Positions 33,064 through 56,410 of a stretch of 64,000 bases of DNA are shown in pieces (within the stretch, counting starts at the first letter, position 1; each line of letters begins with the position of its first letter). The notes below the pieces were generated by a model, which saw only the letters and a list, made by a program, of their open reading frames with translations, did no database searches and was not told the DNA's origin. Origin of the DNA: Patescibacteria group bacterium (GTDB lineage Bacteria; Patescibacteriota; Patescibacteriia; 2-12-FULL-60-25); the NCBI GenBank assembly GCA_029210915.1, contig JARGGJ010000001.1:1-64000 (forward strand), in the 5' to 3' direction. The position numbers and the translations under genes are program-made.

Positions 33064-34005
33064 CTATCTGCTATCTGCTATCACATAAAACCCATTTATA
33101 TAACTCGTAGTTTCATTCGCATCCGCTCCGTAATCAGTCGATATGGCATAATCCAATAGCTCAAAATCAACATCATGCTTTAGCGACTCAAAAATGGCTT
33201 GGAGAACCACAAACCCTTGCGCCGAATCCGTATAATCATCTGTAGCCGATTGCAACTTCTCCCAATTCATACTCCGAATCCAGCTTAATGTGATCTCATC
33301 GTTTTCCCTAGCTTCATAATCGCTTAGATAATGACTCATATCCGATGAGATAATCACAAAGGCATCCTCATCAACCACCTCCGCGATTTCCTGTCCGATT
33401 TTTTGCAGCTGCAAACGTGTCGCTTCGGGTCTTACATAAACCGGAACAATAACCGATCCGGGGAATTCTCTAGCTATAAACGGTGTAAGCGCCCCAACCC
33501 CATGCTCATTTGCAAAAACTTTAACATCCTTAGCTTGAAATATTCCCGTAACATCCAACGCAAGCGATCCAACCTCTCCTGCCGGAGTCGAATAAGCAAA
33601 ATCATGCGTCGATACAAGATCCCCCGCTAAAAAATGATCCGGTGAAACTATTACGAACTTTTTTACATCCGGTCTCGTTGCTTTAAGCGATTTAAAAAAA
33701 CGCGCTTGTAGATCCATTGCCAAACTATGATGATTCACAATCCCCGCAACCGGATGACCGTCTACCTCTTTCACGCCAACCCCTGCAGACCTCGCAAACT
33801 CATACGAATCAACAAATTTCGTACTAACAAGTTCCCTATTTTTAATAACTTGTGACACCTTATCACTGCTGGCCTTTGACGTTTGACGTTTGACGTTTGA
33901 CGAGATATCGCACCCGGATCCAACAATTAAAACAGCAACAATCATCACCAAGATCGTTATATTGAATTTTAAATTAATCATCCTATAAATCATATTTATA
34001 ATCAT
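33064..34005 (-). CDS. Memo-family protein (AmmeMemoRadiSam B) as a lipoprotein
   Basis: Memo fold: GIVNHHSLA, VSPDHFLAGD, NEHGVGALTPFI and ISSDMSHYLSD carry the conserved His, Asp and Glu that bind metal in Memo and LigB-like enzymes. The N-terminal 30 residues form a signal peptide with lipobox VGSGC, unlike the cytosolic Memo of eukaryotes, so the domain should sit on the outer face. Right after the lipobox, an RQTSK-type stretch is encoded by a GACGTTT repeat (33873-33903). Partners AMMECR1 and radical SAM are not in the window. Confidence 0.85.
   Translation of the reverse strand: MIINMIYRMINLKFNITILVMIVAVLIVGSGCDISSNVKRQTSKASSDKVSQVIKNRELVSTKFVDSYEFARSAGVGVKEVDGHPVAGIVNHHSLAMDLQARFFKSLKATRPDVKKFVIVSPDHFLAGDLVSTHDFAYSTPAGEVGSLALDVTGIFQAKDVKVFANEHGVGALTPFIAREFPGSVIVPVYVRPEATRLQLQKIGQEIAEVVDEDAFVIISSDMSHYLSDYEARENDEITLSWIRSMNWEKLQSATDDYTDSAQGFVVLQAIFESLKHDVDFELLDYAISTDYGADANETTSYINGFYVIADSR
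33873..33903. repeat. In-frame (GACGTTT)n repeat in the Memo gene
   Basis: Four copies of GACGTTT, encoding SNVKRQTSK just behind the lipobox. Confidence 0.75.
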
Positions 34006-34056: not shown

Positions 34057-37000
34057 TTATTTTACTATAATCTGTTTGGATTCTGATGTCGCGGCCAAAC
34101 CGGGTACTTGCATGGACTGGATAATAGCTCCATTTGTACTATACGTACCCAAGGAAACAACTCTTGCGGTGTAATTTATATTTACAGGTTTATCGGATTT
34201 ACAAACCACAAAACTTATCTCGCCTTTATTAATTTCCTGCGGGTACCAATCACCCAAGCGATTCCAACGGCCGTATCTTATGGTTACAATTGGCACCAAA
34301 GTTCCCGGCAATCTATCGCGAACAATATAGCATCCATCTTGCGCTCGCGGATCCCAATTTACTTTTAGATTTACTTTAACCATATCACCTTCATTAAGAT
34401 CATTCATGTCTCCATCAATCTTTGTATAATTGCGATCTACGCCAAGCAATGGGCTTGATTCTTTGATATCGCCCTCTACTCTGCGCAAGAAACTTATTGC
34501 TGCGGGCCCGTTTACGCTAAGCACTCTAAACTGCTTCACCTCATCTGGCAATAGAGTAACCGTATGATATGCCCATTCGCTCAAATCCACTTCCAAAACT
34601 TGCTCGCCAATCGCATAACTGATTTTAACATTAACATCAGCTAAAGTCGGAACAATCTTTTCCAAATAGATAGCCCTATCCAAATCTGTCATTGCTTCGT
34701 GAGTCCAAACCGAGTCAACATAAGCCATCATTTTTTCCGCATCCGGATGCGCAAGCACCGAAGCCATTGCGGCAGCTTGCACGGTTGCCTCGATTTCTTC
34801 CGTAACATCATCACTTACCGCAAGACGCATCTGATTATCATTAACTTCCGCCTTGGCAATTAATGAATCCAACAATTTACGCGATGCTTCTCTGTCGCCG
34901 GATTCTTCCAAACCGCGCATAAGCGCCAATTCCTCTCTCCAAGACAAATCTTCTTCAGCGGCAGCCACTCTTAAGCGTTCCAAAACAGGTTGCCCAAGAG
35001 CCGCAAGCCCCGCCAAAGCATCAATGGATTCTTCGCGTGACACATCTTCATCATCAGAAATTGTCCAGAAATAATTAATAAGTTTACTTGTATCAAATGC
35101 GCCCGAATAAGCCCCCGCGGCCTTTGATGAAAGATAAACCTCTGAGGAAGCATAAGGCAATATCGATAAACCGCCGTCTACTTGCTGATATGCCAACAAT
35201 GTATCTACATTTCCATCAATATCCTCGCCATAATAATCCAAGTATAACTTACGCATCATAACACCGGCCAACTGAGATTCTAACCTCGCAGACCAGGGGT
35301 TTGCCAAGTTCCAAACATCAGCTCTTTTTATGGCTTTTGCTTTTGATTCAAATGTTGCTCTTATCTCAGAAGAAACACCCGGATCGGTTAAAGTTACTCC
35401 CGGAGCCAATTCGGTTATCATCCTTTCCTCATGTGTCGCCCTAGATTCAATCACTTCGATTTCTCTTTCTATCGCATCTACCTTTCCGCCCGCTTTAACG
35501 CCAATAATGGCTTTATGCTTTCCTTTAACCAAATTATCAACCGCTAAATATACCGGCTCGTAAGCCTCACCCACTACTTCTTGATCATTAATGCCAAGGG
35601 TTGGAATATCAACAACATATGTTATGCCCCCTTGAGATGGCAATGCCGCACCATGAGCCCTAATCTTAATTACTGGTTTATCGGAGACCAATAGATTCCT
35701 GGGAACTACCGCATCAACAAACACCGGCTTGGTAACGGATACGTTAATTCTACCTTGACCTGCGTAATGGTTTTCCGTAAGAGCCGCCGCAGTCATTCGC
35801 CAAGAGGTAATATTATCGGGAGCGGTAAAAGTTTGCTCTGCCGTACCGCCATAATCAGTTTCCATAACCATGAAAGCGGCTGTATTTTTAAAATCTTTCC
35901 TTATTGCGCCCAGTCCTTCACCTCCGCCCATTTCCGCGCCTCCTCCGGGGCCGTTTTCTTCATACTGATGGCTCCAATTGGATGCCAAAACACCGTCGGA
36001 AACCCAACTATACAAATTTGCTAACGTATTTGGGTCACTACTCCTGCTTGCAACAGCAAGCAAAGCCTCGTCTACCACAGAAACCGCAACACGCGCGCCT
36101 TGCACAGAATTACCATCCTTATCTGTCACCTTGGCTCTAACTTTTATTTGAGCACCCGGAGCATACTTATCTTTATCCGTGCTTAACTCAACATTCAATT
36201 CACGATCTTCTTTCTTTAACGAAGCATGATACTGCGTCTGCTCAAAACCATTTTTTGTGTATGCAACACCATAAATAGCTACATTGGGCATTTCCTTCTC
36301 TGTAAAATTAAATTTATACGAAGCCTCAGTGCTTTGGGTAACCGCCTGTATACCGCGTGATGCTTTTATAAATAGGAATGTAGAGTCACCTTCATTAAAA
36401 GGAACTTTATTTTTTACAAACCTCAAAGAAACTTCCTCCCCTATTGAATATTCATTTTTATCCTTATCCGCTCCCGTAGATTCCAAGGTTAAATATTCAT
36501 CATGAAAGTTATTGTAAGGGCTGTAATTAGCATAACCGCTGTAAACATAAGTCATATCAGCATGCTTAATCTTTCCATTTTCAAGATAGGTTGAGAGTAC
36601 CCTGTAATTAATATCTTTATTCATGGGGAAACTGAGGATTGCCTCTCCCGATGCGTCTGTTCTGCTGGTAAATTTACCAATTGATTCAAACCTTTGATTA
36701 TAACGATAACTTGGATTCACTTTTTTCTCTATCGGATCATACCATGTACCGCTTTCGACCCTATCCCAATGAACTTCAAAGATTTCGCTCTCTATCACGG
36801 CACCAGAAACACCATCTCCATATACAGATGACCCTTCATCGCTTGATTGATTTAAGTTTACTTCACGAACTCTTAACTTAACCGCTCCGTTAGCCGTATC
36901 GCTCTTTTCCGACCAACTATCAAACGCTTGACGCCCGCGCCAAACAGTAACACTGTCTTGGCCAACTATATCTCCCTCCTCACCTAAAACCGGTCGAGCA

Positions 37001-39357
37001 TCCAATGATATTGTTTTTGTATCGGAACAATTTACCCTTTCTTTGTCGGCTGTGCATTCCAATGGTTCTGTAGAAAAATCAAAATAAGCTAATCCGTTAT
37101 CATCTGTTAACAAAACTTCATTACCTCGCTTTTGTCCGTATGTTTCAAAATTAATTTGCAGTTGGCCATAAGGTGTACCATCAAAAAACTCTGATTTTAT
37201 ATTTCCTCGGATTTGCTCACCGGCATAAACCGCTTTTTTATCCGTTATAACCGAAATGGAATAAGCCGGTTTAACAATATCTCTAACTTCCACATTCCTT
37301 TGCTCGATATCCTCCCCGTCTTTAACCAATGTTACATTGTAATACCCCGGAGTAAGTGGCACCGACCAAGCTAATTTACCCTCAAAAAATCCTTCGTCAT
37401 CAGTTGTTAATTCAACACGTGCTAAAACTTTTTGTTTATAGTTCGAATAATCAATGTCGTTAGACCTAAATTCCAATTGAACTACTCCGGCTCCTTCGCC
37501 CTTATCACGAGTTTGTAAAAATCCAAATGCATTCATCTCATCCGTTAACCCATACAATGGACGATCCGGGAATAAATAGCTCCAATATTTCATTTTTCCT
37601 GACATGCTCGAATCCCTTCCATAACCCCAATACCAGTCTATATATTTCACCGACAAAATCACGCCCATTTGTGAAGAACCAACCATCATAACTTCCGATG
37701 GTGATGTTGTATCATCCCAATTTTTATCCGAATTATCCAAATATTCTGCCCATTTTTGGGGCGTTTTAAATTTGGCGACGCCCATATTATCAGTTTTAAG
37801 TTTCTGATCACCCAAAGCAACATCCAGATTCGTGAGTGGTTTTGCGGTATCACGATTTACAGCCCAAACAATAATCTGATCACGATCTACCATCGTGTAT
37901 GCCGCAACATCCGTTCTTTGCAATAACACAAAAGACGGATCTCCAATTGCTGGTTGTATTTTTACAACATACCATCCCTTCGGAGTTTCTGCTGGCAGTC
38001 TTACATAACTTTGCCAATAATTATCCGAATTCTCCAGAGCCGTCTCTAAAGAAAAAACCTCTTGTTTTGCCTGATCCTGCAAAACCGTGGATTTTTCTTT
38101 CGATAGATATGCCCAATATGGAATGCTTTCCAATTCTTTAACCATTTCCAAAGCCGTTTCCATTGTTACGGAATATCCTGTCAATTTTACGTTAGTTCCA
38201 TCGAGATCTTCCGAAGCGGAAACGGGTATTAACACGTCGTTAGCCAACGAAGATTCGAATACATAATTATAGATATTAAAATAACTCTTGTTTCCCGAAT
38301 CCGCATCTTTAGCTTCCGTCTCAAAATGTATAACCACATCGTTTTCCAAACCCGGGCCATCTTTAATACCCCAACCCTTTTTATAAGTTACCGTATAGAT
38401 TGTTGCATGATTCAAGGGTTTGTTTGGAACAAATACAATTGTGCGTCCATGCGTTTCAAATCGCCCCGCAACCTGAGGTTGAATTGTAAAAAAATCATCA
38501 ACATCTTCCCATCCTGTTTTTGACATGGTTACCTCGATACTTGTGTTAACAGGCACATAACTTGTTTTATTCCCCGGTACGGAACGCAAAACTCTAAAAG
38601 TATCCTGTGTTTGTATCGCCCAAGAAAACTCGCGGGGCTTCTTCTCGCCATCACCCTCTACTGCGGCGGCAATGGAAACTTTATAAACTTCTCCGGGGTC
38701 TAAATCCTTTTTAGGCGTTACCGTATATTCCTTATCTCCGCTCTTTTTAATATCAAAATCAACAAACACACCATCTTGTTCGCGGGCCACGGAAACTATT
38801 CTTAAGCTTTGTTGTAAGTCATTTGCATCAACATCAACTTTACTCTCTATCTTGAAACTGGTATCAACAGCCGCATCATCCTCATCGCCTTTATCAACAA
38901 AAATCGTAAACGCATCCCCAGCGTGTACCGCCGGAATAAGAACCGATAATTTTGCTTTACCCATGAAGCTGGATTCTTGATCAGCCATGGGCCCAAAAGG
39001 AAGCGGGCCTGTTTGAGAAACAAAAACCACCAGAACAACAACAGCCGCAACTGCTAAACCGCCCGCCCAAATGTACCAAGGGCGTTTAATAACATTTTTT
39101 GCCTTATTCTCTTTTTTAGCGGACGATATATTTTGTGATTCTTCTTGCATATTGCTTTCTTTAAGATTCTTAGCCATTTGCAATAAATGCATTTTTTGCT
39201 CTTTCATGACACTTGAATCCATCCCCTGTTTCTCCGATGCATCCGCTTCCAATGCTTTTGCCATACGCAAATATGGTTGATATACATCATCAACTTTACC
39301 TTTTTGTTCTAACGCCTCGTTTAAACCTTTGGCGATTTTTTCTTCGTTGTTTCTCAT
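34057..39357 (-). CDS. Membrane-anchored alpha-2-macroglobulin-like protein with cytoplasmic N-domain, 1766 aa
   Basis: Residues 1-92 are cytoplasmic, helical and charged; 93-114 is a membrane helix (YIWAGGLAVAAVVVLVVFVS). Then come Ig-like (Big_5) and macroglobulin MG repeats, and the A2M core around 1180-1290 (NITSWRMTAAALTENHYAG, KPVFVDAVVPRNLLVSDKPV). At the thioester site, where families with a thioester have P-Y-x-C-x-E-Q, this reads NPWSARLESQL: no Cys, so no covalent trapping. ATG 39357 (MRNNEEK) is 1 bp after the sigma-factor stop (TAATATG), so the two are translationally coupled. The N-domain stands exactly where an anti-sigma factor would. The gene is more than three times longer than a typical anti-sigma gene. 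Confidence 0.85.
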   Translation of the reverse strand: MRNNEEKIAKGLNEALEQKGKVDDVYQPYLRMAKALEADASEKQGMDSSVMKEQKMHLLQMAKNLKESNMQEESQNISSAKKENKAKNVIKRPWYIWAGGLAVAAVVVLVVFVSQTGPLPFGPMADQESSFMGKAKLSVLIPAVHAGDAFTIFVDKGDEDDAAVDTSFKIESKVDVDANDLQQSLRIVSVAREQDGVFVDFDIKKSGDKEYTVTPKKDLDPGEVYKVSIAAAVEGDGEKKPREFSWAIQTQDTFRVLRSVPGNKTSYVPVNTSIEVTMSKTGWEDVDDFFTIQPQVAGRFETHGRTIVFVPNKPLNHATIYTVTYKKGWGIKDGPGLENDVVIHFETEAKDADSGNKSYFNIYNYVFESSLANDVLIPVSASEDLDGTNVKLTGYSVTMETALEMVKELESIPYWAYLSKEKSTVLQDQAKQEVFSLETALENSDNYWQSYVRLPAETPKGWYVVKIQPAIGDPSFVLLQRTDVAAYTMVDRDQIIVWAVNRDTAKPLTNLDVALGDQKLKTDNMGVAKFKTPQKWAEYLDNSDKNWDDTTSPSEVMMVGSSQMGVILSVKYIDWYWGYGRDSSMSGKMKYWSYLFPDRPLYGLTDEMNAFGFLQTRDKGEGAGVVQLEFRSNDIDYSNYKQKVLARVELTTDDEGFFEGKLAWSVPLTPGYYNVTLVKDGEDIEQRNVEVRDIVKPAYSISVITDKKAVYAGEQIRGNIKSEFFDGTPYGQLQINFETYGQKRGNEVLLTDDNGLAYFDFSTEPLECTADKERVNCSDTKTISLDARPVLGEEGDIVGQDSVTVWRGRQAFDSWSEKSDTANGAVKLRVREVNLNQSSDEGSSVYGDGVSGAVIESEIFEVHWDRVESGTWYDPIEKKVNPSYRYNQRFESIGKFTSRTDASGEAILSFPMNKDINYRVLSTYLENGKIKHADMTYVYSGYANYSPYNNFHDEYLTLESTGADKDKNEYSIGEEVSLRFVKNKVPFNEGDSTFLFIKASRGIQAVTQSTEASYKFNFTEKEMPNVAIYGVAYTKNGFEQTQYHASLKKEDRELNVELSTDKDKYAPGAQIKVRAKVTDKDGNSVQGARVAVSVVDEALLAVASRSSDPNTLANLYSWVSDGVLASNWSHQYEENGPGGGAEMGGGEGLGAIRKDFKNTAAFMVMETDYGGTAEQTFTAPDNITSWRMTAAALTENHYAGQGRINVSVTKPVFVDAVVPRNLLVSDKPVIKIRAHGAALPSQGGITYVVDIPTLGINDQEVVGEAYEPVYLAVDNLVKGKHKAIIGVKAGGKVDAIEREIEVIESRATHEERMITELAPGVTLTDPGVSSEIRATFESKAKAIKRADVWNLANPWSARLESQLAGVMMRKLYLDYYGEDIDGNVDTLLAYQQVDGGLSILPYASSEVYLSSKAAGAYSGAFDTSKLINYFWTISDDEDVSREESIDALAGLAALGQPVLERLRVAAAEEDLSWREELALMRGLEESGDREASRKLLDSLIAKAEVNDNQMRLAVSDDVTEEIEATVQAAAMASVLAHPDAEKMMAYVDSVWTHEAMTDLDRAIYLEKIVPTLADVNVKISYAIGEQVLEVDLSEWAYHTVTLLPDEVKQFRVLSVNGPAAISFLRRVEGDIKESSPLLGVDRNYTKIDGDMNDLNEGDMVKVNLKVNWDPRAQDGCYIVRDRLPGTLVPIVTIRYGRWNRLGDWYPQEINKGEISFVVCKSDKPVNINYTARVVSLGTYSTNGAIIQSMQVPGLAATSESKQIIVK

Positions 39358-39358
39358 A

Positions 39359-39931
39359 TTAAGCTTTGGATTCAATTAAATTTTTGCGCATTCTGCCAAG
39401 TGCACGATAAATAAGCACCGCCGCGTGATTATTAGAGATGCCAAGTTCCGTTGCAACGTCTTCTGTTTTATAGCCTCCATAAAAACGCAAAGTTAATACT
39501 TCCTGATCACGACCCGATAAATGTTTCATCACTTTCATCAACCTCTCGCGTTCTATTGTCATCTCTGTGTTCCAAGCCGGATCATCATTGGATGGTGGAT
39601 CAAAATAATCATCGTCATCATCTAAAGTAGCGGATTCTTTTCTAACTTTGGCGCTCCTCCAATGATCCGCAAGAGCGTTAACAGCAACTCGATATAGCCA
39701 TGCGCCTATTGGCACACCCTTCCATTCTAATTTGGAATGTGACTCAACAAGTTTCATAAAAGTATGAGCAACAAGATCCTCTGCTGTTTCCTTGTGCCCG
39801 CTTCGTTTTAACAAAAACGAATACAGTGGTTTTGCGTGGCGGTCGTAAATCTCGGAAATTACTTCCGGATCTGCTTTAAACCGCAAGAAGAGTTCGTGCT
39901 CTTCTTCGATTGTTAGTTTATCTGGCGGCAT
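39359..39931 (-). CDS. ECF-type sigma-70 factor
   Basis: Region 2 at residues 20-95 (FKADPEVISEIYDRHAKPLY, GHKETAEDLVAHTFMKLVE, IGAWLYRVAVNALADHWR) and region 4 at 130-185 (LSGRDQEVLTLRFYGGYKTEDVATELGISNNHAAVLIYRALGRM, abbreviated) are clear; no region 1 or 3. It is 190 residues long. The acidic linker (DDDDDYFDPPSNDD) joins the two. It precedes the membrane macroglobulin by 1 bp, the position usual for a sigma factor and its membrane anti-sigma factor, so it is likely released in response to an extracytoplasmic signal. Confidence 0.93.
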   Translation of the reverse strand: MPPDKLTIEEEHELFLRFKADPEVISEIYDRHAKPLYSFLLKRSGHKETAEDLVAHTFMKLVESHSKLEWKGVPIGAWLYRVAVNALADHWRSAKVRKESATLDDDDDYFDPPSNDDPAWNTEMTIERERLMKVMKHLSGRDQEVLTLRFYGGYKTEDVATELGISNNHAAVLIYRALGRMRKNLIESKA

Positions 39932-39994
39932 AATGATAACGAAAATGATTCAATGTGAATGACATAAGTATAAAAGATTTACCCTATTTTAGCA

Positions 39995-40024: not shown

Positions 40025-40690
40025 TTATTGCGTTGATGAAGGTGGAGCAATGGTTGCATTCCGATCATAATGTTCAATCGCAGCATCTATTTTTGCTCCT
40101 TCCAAATTAAAATCATCTGGGGCTGATTTTAGCATTCTTAAAACATCCCCCATCTCAAAAATCGCTTCATAAGATACAGGATCCCCACTCAATGTCGCAA
40201 GATATCGCCTAAACACATGCTCTCTATCGGCATCAAAAACAGAAACTATCTTTGCAACGCTAAATCCTTTAGCGCGCATTAAATTCAATACATGCACAAA
40301 AGAATTATTTGCCATGTTGTTAGCGGCGGTTGGCATGCTGTACGCATTCACCATTACCAAACGACTATTTACAGGAACATCTCCATAAAGCAGAATCGGC
40401 GCTTTACTGCTCGAAGTAACTTCTATAGGAAGTACGAATGGCAATCCGCATCTATCAGCGTAGATTGCCGCTAGTGCCCTGCAATCATCTGTTGATGATG
40501 TTACGGCATCATATGCTCTTGGATCTATCCGATCCGAAAGAAGCTTGAAGACATGTTTGCGCACAATTGGATTGGTTTCCAGCTTGGCCAAATCTACCCT
40601 GAAAGGCAATTGCCTAAAGCGTGGCTCTCGCAAACCCACGGCTCCATGAAGGAATATATCCTTCAAAGCCTCGTACAATGAGCTATCCAT
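40025..40690 (-). CDS. Phosphoribosyltransferase-like protein lacking the PRPP motif
   Basis: The order of segments follows orotate phosphoribosyltransferase: DPRAYDAVTSSTDDCRALAA at the first binding loop, ADRCGLPFVLPIEVTS as the lid strand, and LNLMRAKGFSVAKIVSVFDAD as the late strand-helix unit. The 13-residue PRPP signature (normally V-V-x-D-D-x-x-T-T-G) is replaced by RLVMVNAYSMPTAANN, without the acidic pair. It probably cannot bind PRPP and may be a regulatory or structural derivative. ATG 40690 follows GGAAAGGAAGTGG. The likeness is by eye and should be tested. Confidence 0.5.
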   Translation of the reverse strand: MDSSLYEALKDIFLHGAVGLREPRFRQLPFRVDLAKLETNPIVRKHVFKLLSDRIDPRAYDAVTSSTDDCRALAAIYADRCGLPFVLPIEVTSSSKAPILLYGDVPVNSRLVMVNAYSMPTAANNMANNSFVHVLNLMRAKGFSVAKIVSVFDADREHVFRRYLATLSGDPVSYEAIFEMGDVLRMLKSAPDDFNLEGAKIDAAIEHYDRNATIAPPSSTQ

Positions 40691-51799: not shown

Positions 51800-53836
51800 T
51801 TATTCATATATATAGTCACGATACTCCGGCTCATCCGTGCTGGGATAATCCACCGCTCCTTGCTTTGTGAGATCATAAAGATGGTGCATTTGGATTCCGG
51901 CATTCGAGAGAGTTAAAAACGAATCATCCATATAAGCTACTCTGTTTATATCCTCATCATAATTTCCATAATACCAACCCGATTTCATCATCGCCTGATC
52001 ATCCTTGTGATGCGTAATTTTACCTAACTCTTCAAATCCGCTTTCTACTGTTAAACGATACACAATAGCTCCTTGAAAAGTAAAATCACCATACTCATTC
52101 CCTTCTCGATTCGGATCCGTTTTAACCGATTCATCCAACTCCGCGATTCTAACCGGGAAAGAAAGCAACTGCTTGCTTGGAGAGTACAAGAAAGCTTTAT
52201 GATTATGCAAAGCTTCGGATTCAGTACCGCGGTCACCGATAATTACTTTATGCAACTCTTTTGGATTTGTTACATCGGTCACATCAAACACAGCCATCTT
52301 AATACCCTGATACCAGGCAAAATCCGCCTGCTCTCCGCTCCACGGATCCTCTCCCGCTTCTACCGTATCTTTACCGATGCCGATTATATGATTTTCATCC
52401 ATGGGATGCAGATAATCCGAATATCCAGGGATCTTAAGCTTGCCAAGAATCGATGGATTCTGCGGATCCTTTAAATCCAGCACAAAAAACGGATCTATTT
52501 TTTTAAAGGTAACCATATAACCGCGATCGCCCATAAATCTCATGGAATAAATGGATTCCCCGGGCGCGATACCTTCTATTTTTCCGGCCGGATCCATATT
52601 CGATGTTAAAATATATACATTGTTGGTGGAATCCGCGCCCGTACGCCAAACTTGACCCTTGGTTGTAGCAACCCGTAGATAGCTGTTATGTTCATCCAAA
52701 GAAAATTGATTTAAAAGATGCCCCGGCACGGATCCTTGTTTGGCAAACTCAATCTTTCCACCACTTAGATTAAACTTGTAGATATTCGTCTTTTCACGGT
52801 CTTCGGGAATCATACTGTCGTAAAAAGGTCTGTACTGCCAATCCTGACGCGCAACATACAAATTATCGAGCGACGCATAAACAGTTTCACTCGCTCCCAA
52901 AATAACCTCTCTCTGAACTTCCCCGGTTCCGTGCATTGGCACAGAGGCAACTGTTAAATACTCACGGCTGGGTTCCGGATCAAAATATCCAACATTTCCG
53001 CATCTAACCATCGGTTCAAAACTCGTGCTCACACTGCTATCGCGATATGCGGGAATCAAATCTTTGTCCTCCGGCATAATATCAAACCCAAACCAAGGGC
53101 TCCAAGAATTCATCACCAAATAAACATTCCCATCTATCATCCTTGATGATGATAACGATCCGTCGAACTCCACTGTTCTAACCTTAGATGGTTTAGAACG
53201 ATCCGAAATATCCCAAATCTGCGCGATAGATACAGAGCCTCCGCGCATATGTGGGGCAAACTCATAAGCAATATCACGTACTAAAGGCATGGGATAAATA
53301 TTATCATTATATGTATGCCCCATTACCATTAACCTATTATCATCAATATAAAAATCACTTGCGTTCACATTTTCGTCCATATCAATTTCACCAACAAGCT
53401 TCGCGGATTCGGTTGGTAAAATCTGGGAAATCATTATTCGATTTTTTGATAGATGATATACATAAGTACCATCCATCTTTAAAATATCCGCCTCATCAAC
53501 TCCCTCAACTTGCACATTGGTTTGCGAATAATCGCCAGATGCCTCAGGAGCCATTTGTGCCGCGCTTGATGGCACGCTGTCTGATATTGGCGCCGAATTT
53601 TTCATCATCGGCATGGCCACCATATCCTCCATTACAATATAACTATCTTCCTCATCCGCTTTAACAATCTGATCCTTTAAAACCGAGCAGGATTCAAACC
53701 TCTGCACTCCCTCTGCCTGAACCAATGGCTTGCTTGGCATTTTTAAATCAATATTAACCACAGGCGCCATGGGCGACATGCCAAAAGCCGTAACCATTAA
53801 AGCTCCAAGTGATTTTAAAAACAAACTTGTAAACAT
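51800..53836 (-). CDS. Secreted beta-propeller protein, 678 aa
   Basis: Signal peptide or anchor (1-24), a low-complexity Met/Pro/Ala region with FESCSVLKDQ, then from about 100 the pattern typical of the bacterial C-terminal beta-propeller family: NVQVEGVDEADILKMDGTYVY, HTYNDN, GNVYLVMNS, GDRGYMVTFKKIDPFFVLDL, LKIPGYSDYLHPMDENHIIGIGKD and MAVFDVTDVTNPKEL. The last part (FSLDEHNSYLRVATTKG) is also conserved. It sits on the cell surface; function unknown. Confidence 0.85.
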   Translation of the reverse strand: MFTSLFLKSLGALMVTAFGMSPMAPVVNIDLKMPSKPLVQAEGVQRFESCSVLKDQIVKADEEDSYIVMEDMVAMPMMKNSAPISDSVPSSAAQMAPEASGDYSQTNVQVEGVDEADILKMDGTYVYHLSKNRIMISQILPTESAKLVGEIDMDENVNASDFYIDDNRLMVMGHTYNDNIYPMPLVRDIAYEFAPHMRGGSVSIAQIWDISDRSKPSKVRTVEFDGSLSSSRMIDGNVYLVMNSWSPWFGFDIMPEDKDLIPAYRDSSVSTSFEPMVRCGNVGYFDPEPSREYLTVASVPMHGTGEVQREVILGASETVYASLDNLYVARQDWQYRPFYDSMIPEDREKTNIYKFNLSGGKIEFAKQGSVPGHLLNQFSLDEHNSYLRVATTKGQVWRTGADSTNNVYILTSNMDPAGKIEGIAPGESIYSMRFMGDRGYMVTFKKIDPFFVLDLKDPQNPSILGKLKIPGYSDYLHPMDENHIIGIGKDTVEAGEDPWSGEQADFAWYQGIKMAVFDVTDVTNPKELHKVIIGDRGTESEALHNHKAFLYSPSKQLLSFPVRIAELDESVKTDPNREGNEYGDFTFQGAIVYRLTVESGFEELGKITHHKDDQAMMKSGWYYGNYDEDINRVAYMDDSFLTLSNAGIQMHHLYDLTKQGAVDYPSTDEPEYRDYIYE

Positions 53837-53925: not shown

Positions 53926-53992
53926 ATATATTAAAAGTGTATCTTGATATTAGATAAAACGCCAATTCAAAACAGTGATGACAAATAGAAAA

Positions 53993-54947: not shown

Positions 54948-55700
54948 TTACCTTAAAGGCTCTTTCACCTGTTCCTTCATGTACTGTTGCACTCGCTGAA
55001 TCCTTACACCGCGAGGGCAAGGTAATAATTCTTTTGCCTCAAAAACTTTTACAGTTGAACTGGGCATTCCAATAATTCGAACACAATTTCCTTGTTCGAC
55101 AAAATCCAATTGCCTCAGATCACATTGACGAACATCAACCTGCCAAATAATTCCACCCGGATCTTGTATCATCATGTGTCCATTTTGCGATTCCTGTATT
55201 CTCCCAATAATCCTATTTTGTTCAATTTTAATAAATTGATTTAAACGCGGACGCTGTATCAAACTGTAACCCGGCATTCTTGAAGCGGCAGATTCTATTC
55301 TATCCGACATACCCGTAGCGGATATCGCACCGCCAAAAGCAATGAATGCCAATGCCACAGAACCCCCAATAACAACTGTTCTATATCTATAACCACGCGG
55401 AGCATGTACAAAAATGGAAATTGCACCAACAGCTAAAATCAAACTGAGTATTATCCAAAATAATGGCAAAGCGTCTAAGATGCTCGACAATGCGTCACCG
55501 TTATTATATTCCATCAACAAACCACTCGGGTCCGTCATAAACCAAACCGCAACTCCGGATGACGCCGTACCTATAACCACAAAAGATCCAAATAAAATCC
55601 AAAGTAACACATGCCTTACTTGCACGCGCCATCTTGGAATGGGCTCGGGTAATTTACCCTGCTCGATCTTCTCTTTAAATTGATCTGCTATGCTGGTCAT
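54948..55700 (-). CDS. Putative membrane anti-sigma factor with OB-fold-like outer domain, 250 aa
   Basis: Residues 1-25 are cytoplasmic (SIADQFKEKIEQGKLPEP). Membrane helices stand at about 30-55, 78-97 and 105-127, and a C-terminal beta domain follows (INRIIGRIQESQNG-HMMIQD, CVRIIGMPSSTVKVFEAKEL) resembling an OB fold, with two Cys that may pair. It overlaps the sigma gene by 4 bp (ATGA). Position and topology suit an anti-sigma factor, although no zinc or RseA-type N-domain is seen; the N-terminal tail is short for that. Confidence 0.65.
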   Translation of the reverse strand: MTSIADQFKEKIEQGKLPEPIPRWRVQVRHVLLWILFGSFVVIGTASSGVAVWFMTDPSGLLMEYNNGDALSSILDALPLFWIILSLILAVGAISIFVHAPRGYRYRTVVIGGSVALAFIAFGGAISATGMSDRIESAASRMPGYSLIQRPRLNQFIKIEQNRIIGRIQESQNGHMMIQDPGGIIWQVDVRQCDLRQLDFVEQGNCVRIIGMPSSTVKVFEAKELLPCPRGVRIQRVQQYMKEQVKEPLR

Positions 55701-56290
55701 ATAATTTTATTTGCCAATTCAAATTGTTCCGCTGACTTTTGAAACTTTTGTTTTGCTCTTCTGATCCATGTAGCAACAGTCCCTGGTGGAGCGCGCAAAA
55801 TATCACTGATTTCGTCATACGTCTTTTCTTCCATATACGCTAAAACCAACACATTCCTGTCGCGCTCCGATAGTTGTTTCAAAATTTTTCCCACCATCTC
55901 CGCCGTAAGATTCTGATCGGCCATACGCGCCGTATCATCCCCTGCCGCCATCATGCGCTTAAAAGCATCATCATCCGCATCAATCGACATGTCTCCCATT
56001 TCTTTTTTCTTTTTGCGATACGCCGATATTGTTCTGTTGTGCACGATACGATAAATCCAGCTGGAAAATTTTAATGATGGATCAAAATTAGCAATATGTT
56101 TGTAAGCATCCATAAAAGATTCCTGCAAAATATCTTCCGCATCTTCTACGGATGAACCGCTGATCCTTCTTATATATGATAAAAGACGCGATTCGTAGCG
56201 CCTAATTAAAACAACTAACGCATTGGCATCCTTTAAGACGCTTTGGGCTAGCTCTTCATCTGTTTTGTTTTGGTATTCATCCGGGGGCAT
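55697..56290 (-). CDS. ECF-type sigma-70 factor 2
   Basis: Region 2 (ALVVLIRRYESRLLSYIRRI, EDAEDILQESFMDAYKHIAN, FSSWIYRIVHNRTISAYRKK) and region 4 (LSERDRNVLVLAYMEEKTYDEI, PPGTVATWIRRAKQKFQ) are intact. ATG 56290 (MPPDEYQNK) is preferred: a TACAAT box ends 7 bp upstream, giving a leaderless message, and the other sigma factor also opens MPPD. Linker GDMSIDADDDAFKRMMAAGDD is acidic. Followed by a membrane partner overlapping by 4 bp and a secreted protein. Confidence 0.92.
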   Translation of the reverse strand: MPPDEYQNKTDEELAQSVLKDANALVVLIRRYESRLLSYIRRISGSSVEDAEDILQESFMDAYKHIANFDPSLKFSSWIYRIVHNRTISAYRKKKKEMGDMSIDADDDAFKRMMAAGDDTARMADQNLTAEMVGKILKQLSERDRNVLVLAYMEEKTYDEISDILRAPPGTVATWIRRAKQKFQKSAEQFELANKII

Positions 56291-56410
56291 AAACCACATT
56301 GTATAGTACGCACAACCCAACGCAAGTCTTTCAACTTTTTTTTGCTATACAGAGCAAAAAACTTAACCGCAAATTCTCAAACTTAAAAATAATTGTTACG
56401 GCACTATTTC

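What the first reader, a model, noticed from the sequence alone, without database searches (positions are those of the whole stretch)
34057..39931. ECF sigma factor coupled to a transmembrane macroglobulin that may itself be the anti-sigma factor
The sigma-factor stop and the next ATG are separated by one base (TAATATG). The second protein has a 92-residue charged cytoplasmic N-domain, one membrane helix, then about 1650 residues of Big_5, MG and A2M domains outside. Known membrane anti-sigma factors have this layout but small outer domains. Bait-type cleavage of an outer macroglobulin by a foreign protease would be a direct way to sense attack and free the sigma factor. The thioester motif is lost (NPWSARLESQL instead of P-Y-x-C-x-E-Q), which suits a sensor more than a covalent trap. 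I know of no described sensor of this kind.
Basis: partly seen in the sequence, partly recalled or inferred. Interest (0 to 1): 0.85.

Follow-up and report, generated by a model that had tools for sequence, protein, structure and literature searches.

The report
Macroglobulin acting as membrane anti-sigma factor
In a group of tiny, mostly uncultured bacteria, an immune-type surface protein (a macroglobulin) is built as the membrane tether of a gene switch (a sigma factor), which suggests that the cell watches the state of this protein outside to decide when to make more of it.

Summary
The window is from Candidatus Uhrbacteria (Patescibacteria). An ECF sigma gene (39359-39931, -) is followed after one base by a 1766-aa macroglobulin (34057-39357, -): 92-aa cytoplasmic tail, one membrane helix, outer Big_5/MG/A2M domains, no thioester. 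In the order, 28 of 41 genomes have both genes, adjacent in all 28; 13 have neither. Macroglobulins with an ECF gene directly upstream also occur in seven other families of the phylum. There the coupled proteins have a 36-87-aa tail, whereas most uncoupled ones have 7-30 aa. A helix of the tail is modelled at pLDDT ~95 next to sigma but ~56 without it. An ECF-type promoter (TGTCAT-N15-17-CGTT just before the ATG) precedes the operon in 24 of 27 loci. A membrane-anchored Memo-like gene follows the macroglobulin in nearly all Uhrbacteria, and also next to sigma-less macroglobulins. I conclude that the macroglobulin is very probably the anti-sigma factor and the operon autoregulated. Release by cleavage of a bait loop is possible but unproven: the loop is almost invariant. 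Thioester loss is not a hallmark, since one coupled relative keeps YGCVEQ. Most distant relatives carry an intein-like Hint domain in the bait loop.

The parts
39959..39964 (-). -35-like element TGTCAT of a conserved ECF-type promoter
   Evidence: [TC]GTCA-N16-18-CGTT in 24 of 27 sigma loci; shuffles give a mean of 0.1 and a maximum of 2; position
39938..39941 (-). -10-like element CGTT, 6 bases before the sigma ATG (possible leaderless start)
   Evidence: the element directly before an ATG occurs at the sigma gene in 9 of 9 genus genomes, and the other hits have no gene behind them
39967..39972 (-). TATACT, -10-like element of an overlapping housekeeping-type promoter (TTGCTA-N17-TATACT)
   Evidence: sequence; similar TATACT-like boxes precede TGTCA in most relatives
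39359..39931 (-). ECF sigma factor, 190 aa, regions 2 and 4
   Evidence: nearest solved structure is BldN, 6dxo_A, E 3.5e-26 with the profile
39082..39357 (-). cytoplasmic N-domain of the macroglobulin, residues 1-92, proposed anti-sigma domain; core P-x4-A-x-AL-x3-A ... LD-x2-V-x3-Q[RK]-x2-L-x2-MA
   Evidence: 26-row alignments; helix pLDDT ~95 with sigma in L061 against ~56 alone
39016..39081 (-). single membrane helix (about residues 93-114)
   Evidence: hydropathy in the orthologues; helix 101-115 in the model
38944..39015 (-). disordered juxtamembrane linker (about residues 115-138), candidate site-1 cleavage region
   Evidence: pLDDT 26-48; poorly conserved
38908..38940 (-). conserved juxtamembrane motif LIPAVHAGDAF (residues 140-150), start of the first outer domain
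   Evidence: P142, A146 and F150 invariant, I141, D148 and A149 nearly so; pLDDT about 80
34057..38940 (-). outer part: Big_5, MG2, A2M_BRD, A2M and a degenerate thioester domain
   Evidence: Foldseek of residues 1-1192: E. coli ECAM 5a42 E 6.3e-32, Salmonella A2M 4u48 E 2.3e-30
35884..35964 (-). bait-position loop, residues 1132-1158, with the near-invariant GGAEMGGG
   Evidence: pLDDT 28-44; G1139 G1140 A1141 E1142 G1144 G1145 invariant; site of the Hint insertion in relatives
33064..34005 (-). Memo-like lipoprotein, third gene of the cluster (signal LIVGSGC)
   Evidence: Pfam Memo E 8.7e-22, TIGR04336 E 5e-26; next gene in 23 relatives, often overlapping the macroglobulin stop by 4 bases

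Best explanation
The two genes are a cognate ECF sigma/anti-sigma pair in which the anti-sigma factor is a macroglobulin. The cytoplasmic tail binds the sigma factor through short helices and holds it at the membrane; one helix crosses the membrane; about 1650 residues of macroglobulin outside form the sensor. A change outside (cleavage, binding of a partner, or damage) exposes the flexible linker next to the membrane, an unknown site-1 protease and then the RseP-type protease remove the tail, and sigma is freed. Shown here: gene order, strict co-occurrence, tail architecture, conserved promoter, macroglobulin fold, loss of the thioester. Inferred: the binding, the proteolytic release, the autoregulation. 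Guess: the trigger.
For: Both genes in 28 of 41 order genomes, adjacent in 28 of 28; 13 genomes have neither; sigma orthologues at 43% identity or more are clearly split from paralogues at 36% or less. Three genera contain both states, the pair always going together. Coupling recurs with other ECF branches in ten further genomes of the phylum sample. Tail length 36-87 aa in 10 coupled against 7-30 aa in 8 of 11 uncoupled macroglobulins, p 0.0017. Tail helix pLDDT 94-95 with sigma, ~56 without. The only PDB chain matching the tail profile (E 2.5, weak) is the anti-sigma chain in the RsbN-BldN complex, and BldN is also the nearest solved relative of the sigma factor. Promoter motif in 24 of 27 loci. 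The three other ECF genes of the genome are each followed at once by a membrane protein, one with DUF5667. An M50 site-2 protease gene is present.
Against: No known anti-sigma family matches the tail, and the RsbN match did not return with a core profile. Neighbouring genes are lost together without any binding, so co-occurrence is not independent proof. The two pLDDT values come from different species and alignments, and no coordinates or PAE were available. The macroglobulin-Memo pair also exists without sigma, so the protein has a function beyond holding sigma. Three uncoupled relatives have tails of 47-71 aa.
Confidence: 0.78

Rival explanations
1. Bait sensor, as proposed by the first reader: a foreign protease cuts the bait loop, the macroglobulin collapses as A2M does, and the collapse starts release of sigma. 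A detector of attack.
For: Macroglobulin fold with a bait-region domain; the loop at the bait position is disordered and exposed; in relatives, sigma-coupled ones included, exactly this point carries a Hint domain with all self-cleavage residues, so chain scission here seems to matter.
Against: The loop is nearly invariant (GGAExGG) across about 28-66% identity, unlike a broad-specificity bait; uncoupled relatives share the layout; no cleavage data.
Confidence: 0.3
2. Inventory control: the signal is loss, use or misfolding of the macroglobulin itself or of its Memo partner; the pathway only keeps their amount constant.
For: The only promoter found in the strict arrangement is that of the own operon in 9 of 9 genomes; the Memo gene is co-transcribed by position and often overlaps the macroglobulin stop by 4 bases; the macroglobulin-Memo pair also exists without sigma.
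Against: Targets with other promoter positions were not excluded; the loose pattern is no commoner in the genome than its reversed control.
Confidence: 0.4
3. The genes are co-transcribed but do not bind; the tail is a generic cytoplasmic extension and sigma is regulated by something else.
For: No known anti-sigma domain is recognised in the tail; three uncoupled macroglobulins also have tails over 40 aa.
Against: 28 of 28 adjacency, tail-coupling association, repeated pairing with different ECF branches, a conserved two-helix core in the tail.
Confidence: 0.15

Closest known systems
RsbN / BldN (Streptomyces; class III anti-sigma domain, PDB 6dxo)
   Same: Zinc-free cytoplasmic domain of about 90 aa on a single-pass membrane protein encoded with the ECF gene; the sigma is BldN-like (TIGR02952 E 7e-30; 6dxo_A nearest solved); local match LDPEVKVVQRAQL to the tail consensus LDxxVxxxQRxxL.
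   Different: The tail match is not significant (E 2.5; absent); the sigma score is half the BldN equivalog cut-off (104 against 206 bits); the outer part is a macroglobulin.
RsgI / sigma-I of Clostridium thermocellum and Acetivibrio (PMC3413522)
   Same: Membrane anti-sigma factor with large outer sensing modules.
   Different: Sigma-I is not an ECF factor; the outer modules bind polysaccharides.
RsiV / sigma-V and RsiP / sigma-P of Bacillus (PMC8844934)
   Same: Protein-based external sensing followed by site-1 and site-2 proteolysis of the anti-sigma factor.
   Different: Small outer domains; signal peptidase cuts close to the membrane. Here the AxA-like motif lies in a folded domain.
Bacterial alpha-2-macroglobulins ECAM/YfhM (5a42, 4ziq) and Salmonella A2M (4u48)
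   Same: MG domains, bait-region domain, A2M domain and overall fold.
   Different: They are lipoproteins with a CxEQ thioester and without an anti-sigma tail; here N-in membrane helix, tail, no thioester.

Membership tests
ECF sigma factor | Sigma70 regions 2 and 4, about 190 aa, without regions 1 and 3 | tested here: met
   Pfam Sigma70_r2 E 8.6e-15, r4_2 E 3.4e-10; TIGR02937 over its cut-off
BldN equivalog (TIGR02952) | Score over the curated cut-off of 206.45 bits | tested here: not met
   104.1 bits
Membrane anti-sigma factor of an ECF sigma | Gene directly next to the cognate ECF gene and occurring with it | tested here: met
   28 of 28 adjacent; 28 both, 13 neither
Membrane anti-sigma factor of an ECF sigma | Cytoplasmic N-domain, one membrane helix, outer domain | tested here: met
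   Hydropathy and alignment of orthologues
Membrane anti-sigma factor of an ECF sigma | N-domain recognisable as a known anti-sigma domain family | tested here: inconclusive
   No Pfam or NCBIfam match; single weak match to RsbN, E 2.5, not seen with the core profile
Membrane anti-sigma factor of an ECF sigma | Binds sigma regions 2/4 and blocks RNA polymerase | tested here: inconclusive
   Tail helix pLDDT ~95 beside sigma, ~56 alone; no contacts could be read
Membrane anti-sigma factor of an ECF sigma | Release by regulated proteolysis | not testable with these tools
   A site-2 protease gene is present; no site-1 protease assigned
Alpha-2-macroglobulin family | MG2, bait-region domain and A2M domain in order | tested here: met
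   Pfam over cut-off; ECAM best fold match
Thioester-type alpha-2-macroglobulin | CxEQ thioester in the TED domain | tested here: not met
   No CxEQ in the window protein or the orthologues
Protease-trapping alpha-2-macroglobulin | Bait region cut by many proteases, followed by collapse | not testable with these tools
   A disordered loop is present but nearly invariant

The most novel reading that the evidence does not exclude
Patescibacteria use macroglobulins as transmembrane tripwires: scission of the bait loop outside is passed through the membrane to an ECF sigma factor. In several lineages the bait is itself a Hint (intein-like) domain with the residues for self-cleavage, so the tripwire could be set by autoprocessing or by a Hint thioester in place of the lost TED thioester; Uhrbacteria lack the Hint and keep the GGAExGG loop.
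Probability: 0.2. Interest if true: 0.92.

Novelty: new variant of a known kind. Interest (0 to 1): 0.78.

Why it matters
Macroglobulins are known as traps, in animal immunity and in the envelope of some bacteria. Here one would act as a signal receptor wired to transcription, in a phylum of ultra-small, mostly uncultured and probably epibiotic bacteria with few known signalling systems. It offers a testable answer to what a thioester-less bacterial macroglobulin is for, links it to a membrane-anchored Memo-like protein, and shows the same coupling with several ECF branches, so different lineages seem to have kept or reinvented it.

Tried and rejected
Giving sigma rows and tail rows unpaired failed because MAFFT laid the tails on sigma. 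Fold searches with the fused model only find sigma folds, so they say nothing about the tail. A core-only tail profile found coiled-coil designs and not RsbN, so RsbN kinship stays a lead. Signal-peptidase cleavage at the conserved A-x-A-x-DAF motif was considered, as in RsiV/RsiP, but the motif lies in a folded domain 15-30 residues past the membrane helix: not favoured. A regulon search gave only the own operon; other strict hits have no gene behind them, and the loose pattern is no commoner than its reversed control. The gene upstream (40025-40690) as a separate anti-sigma factor: no Pfam match and found in only three relatives: rejected.

Full report
WHAT IS THERE. The minus strand of the window holds, in order, a promoter-like element, an ECF sigma gene (39931-39359), a macroglobulin gene (ATG 39357, stop 34057) and a Memo-like gene (34005-33064). 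The sigma stop and the next ATG are separated by one T. Pfam gives Sigma70_r2 and r4 for the first protein, Big_5, MG2, A2M_BRD and A2M for the second, Memo for the third. The second protein has 92 residues before its only strong N-terminal hydrophobic stretch. Residues 1-1192, modelled with 18 relatives, match E. coli ECAM best (5a42, E 6.3e-32); the profile matches YfhM and human A2M by sequence. The thioester motif is absent in all the orthologues, whereas a free-standing A2M in the same bacterial family (L030) keeps YGCSEQT.

IS IT MORE THAN CHANCE. Named relatives show that the genome belongs to Candidatus Uhrbacteria, Patescibacteria. The order has 41 genomes on hand. 28 encode the macroglobulin. 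A sigma orthologue of at least 43% identity is found in exactly the same 28; the other 13 have only paralogues of at most 36% identity. In 26 genomes the two genes are read next to each other on one contig. In the other two, G016 and G031, the sigma contig ends inside the start of the macroglobulin, so the genes are adjacent there too. G032 and G015 have a different, free-standing A2M, and G006 has such a protein besides the coupled one. Three genera contain both states, and the pair always goes together. A two-way table gives p 6e-11, but the genomes are related, so this is not a probability in the strict sense.

BEYOND THE ORDER. In an even sample of 380 genomes of the phylum, 22 genomes outside the family have more distant macroglobulins. 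Where the upstream DNA can be read, an ECF gene lies directly upstream in ten of them: G348, G137, G234, G316, G272, G275, G117 and G065, G124 and G080. They belong to seven families. The ECF factors fall on several branches; those of G316 and G275 group with unrelated ECFs of other loci (deep forks weak). Coupled proteins have cytoplasmic tails of 36-87 aa; eleven uncoupled ones (one of them, G046) have 7, 11, 12, 14, 15, 15, 15, 30, 47, 61 and 71 aa (p 0.0017). So the tail is found where the sigma is, with three exceptions.

THE TAIL. Twenty-six tails share a core, P-x4-A-x-AL-x3-A followed by LD-x2-V-x3-Q[RK]-x2-L-x2-MA. No Pfam or NCBIfam family matches. The only PDB chain matched by the full tail profile is the second chain of 6dxo, the RsbN-BldN complex, at E 2.5; it is not found with the core profile, so this is a lead and not a result. 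It is notable because BldN (6dxo_A) is the nearest solved relative of the sigma factor. In orthologue L061 the two genes are in frame across a TAG; read through and modelled, the last tail helix has pLDDT 94-95. In the window protein modelled without sigma the same helix has about 56. The two runs differ in species and alignment and no contacts could be read, so this supports binding but does not show it.

REGULATION. Upstream of sigma, 24 of 27 loci have [TC]GTCA-N16-18-CGTT ending 0-7 bases before the ATG; shuffles give 0.1 on average. Spacing and position fit an ECF promoter with a leaderless or nearly leaderless start; that this sigma reads it is inferred. In the genus the strict arrangement occurs at the sigma gene in 9 of 9 genomes and otherwise only before ATGs without a gene. 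The genome has an M50 site-2 protease gene. The other three ECF genes are each followed at once by a membrane protein, one with DUF5667, so direct downstream neighbours are the rule for anti-sigma factors here.

THE THIRD GENE. The Memo-like gene directly follows the macroglobulin in 23 relatives, often with a 4-base overlap; it keeps NHH, SPDH, EHG and SDMSH and has an N-terminal membrane segment or lipobox. It also follows macroglobulins without sigma (G129, G238, G165, G347, G046) and is present in two distant coupled loci (G275, G080) but was not found within a few kb of several others. The macroglobulin-Memo link is therefore wider than the sigma link, and the macroglobulin has a role besides signalling.

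HOW IT PROBABLY WORKS. The tail holds sigma at the membrane. Something outside acts on the macroglobulin; the disordered linker after the membrane helix (pLDDT 26-48) is the likely place for a first cut, followed by the site-2 protease; free sigma renews its own operon. The trigger is open. A protease cutting the bait is attractive, but the loop is nearly invariant (GGAExGG). Simple supply control of the macroglobulin and Memo proteins explains the narrow promoter equally well.

AGAINST KNOWN SYSTEMS. As a mechanism it resembles RsiV/RsiP and RsgI. By family the sigma is an ECF factor, below the BldN equivalog cut-off; the second protein is a macroglobulin without thioester; the tail belongs to no recognised anti-sigma family. 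I found no paper that describes a macroglobulin as an anti-sigma factor or linked to an ECF gene, within an open-access library only. I rate it a new variant of a known kind: a membrane anti-sigma factor with a new type of outer domain.

A SECOND FIND. In 12 distant macroglobulins the bait loop contains a PT-HINT/intein-like domain of about 125 aa (Pfam E 1e-11 to 5e-16 for the four tested alone). All 12 keep Cys1, the VTxxH block and the final HN; the next residue is E, D, A, N or K, so splicing is not expected but self-cleavage is possible. The insertion sits exactly in GGAEKGG, which in Uhrbacteria is uninterrupted. At least seven of these proteins are sigma-coupled. One, in G065 (L138), has sigma, tail, Hint and an intact thioester YGCVEQ. 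A paper search for macroglobulin with intein or Hint listed no paper with both.

Noticed in passing
L122, L123, L124, L125, L126, L128, L129, L130, L131, L132, L133, L138 (bait region): Macroglobulins of other Patescibacteria carry a PT-HINT/intein-like domain inside the bait loop, with Cys1, VTxxH and the C-terminal HN conserved in 12 of 12 and a non-nucleophile at +1: possible self-cleaving bait.
   Followed up: partly
window 33064-34005 and downstream of macroglobulin genes in 23 relatives; also L212, L213, L211, L222, L028: A membrane-anchored Memo-like (AmmeMemoRadiSam B) protein is the constant neighbour of patescibacterial macroglobulins, with or without sigma.
   Followed up: partly
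L138 (G065): A sigma-coupled macroglobulin with anti-sigma-like tail, Hint domain and intact thioester YGCVEQ in one protein.
   Followed up: partly
window 39942-39958 and the same spacer in relatives: The spacer between the two promoter boxes forms an inverted repeat in many relatives (e.g. GGGGCTTAGGCCCC in L042, AGGCGGTCGCCT in L056) with changing sequence: perhaps an operator or a hairpin.
   Followed up: no
window 54948-56320 and L004 1468-2779: Two further ECF genes, each with a 237-250-aa multi-pass membrane protein directly downstream and a small exported protein with repeated 'NADNF.RF..MH' motifs after it.
   Followed up: no
L002 965-2776 (G000 contig C26): ECF gene followed by a DUF5667 protein whose tail (PDAVWVAETRQTLLMQV) resembles the macroglobulin tail motif.
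   Followed up: no
window 53958-53983: TGTCAT-N16-CGTT about 120 bases upstream of the exported 678-aa protein at 51800-53836: a possible target, but chance cannot be excluded.
   Followed up: no
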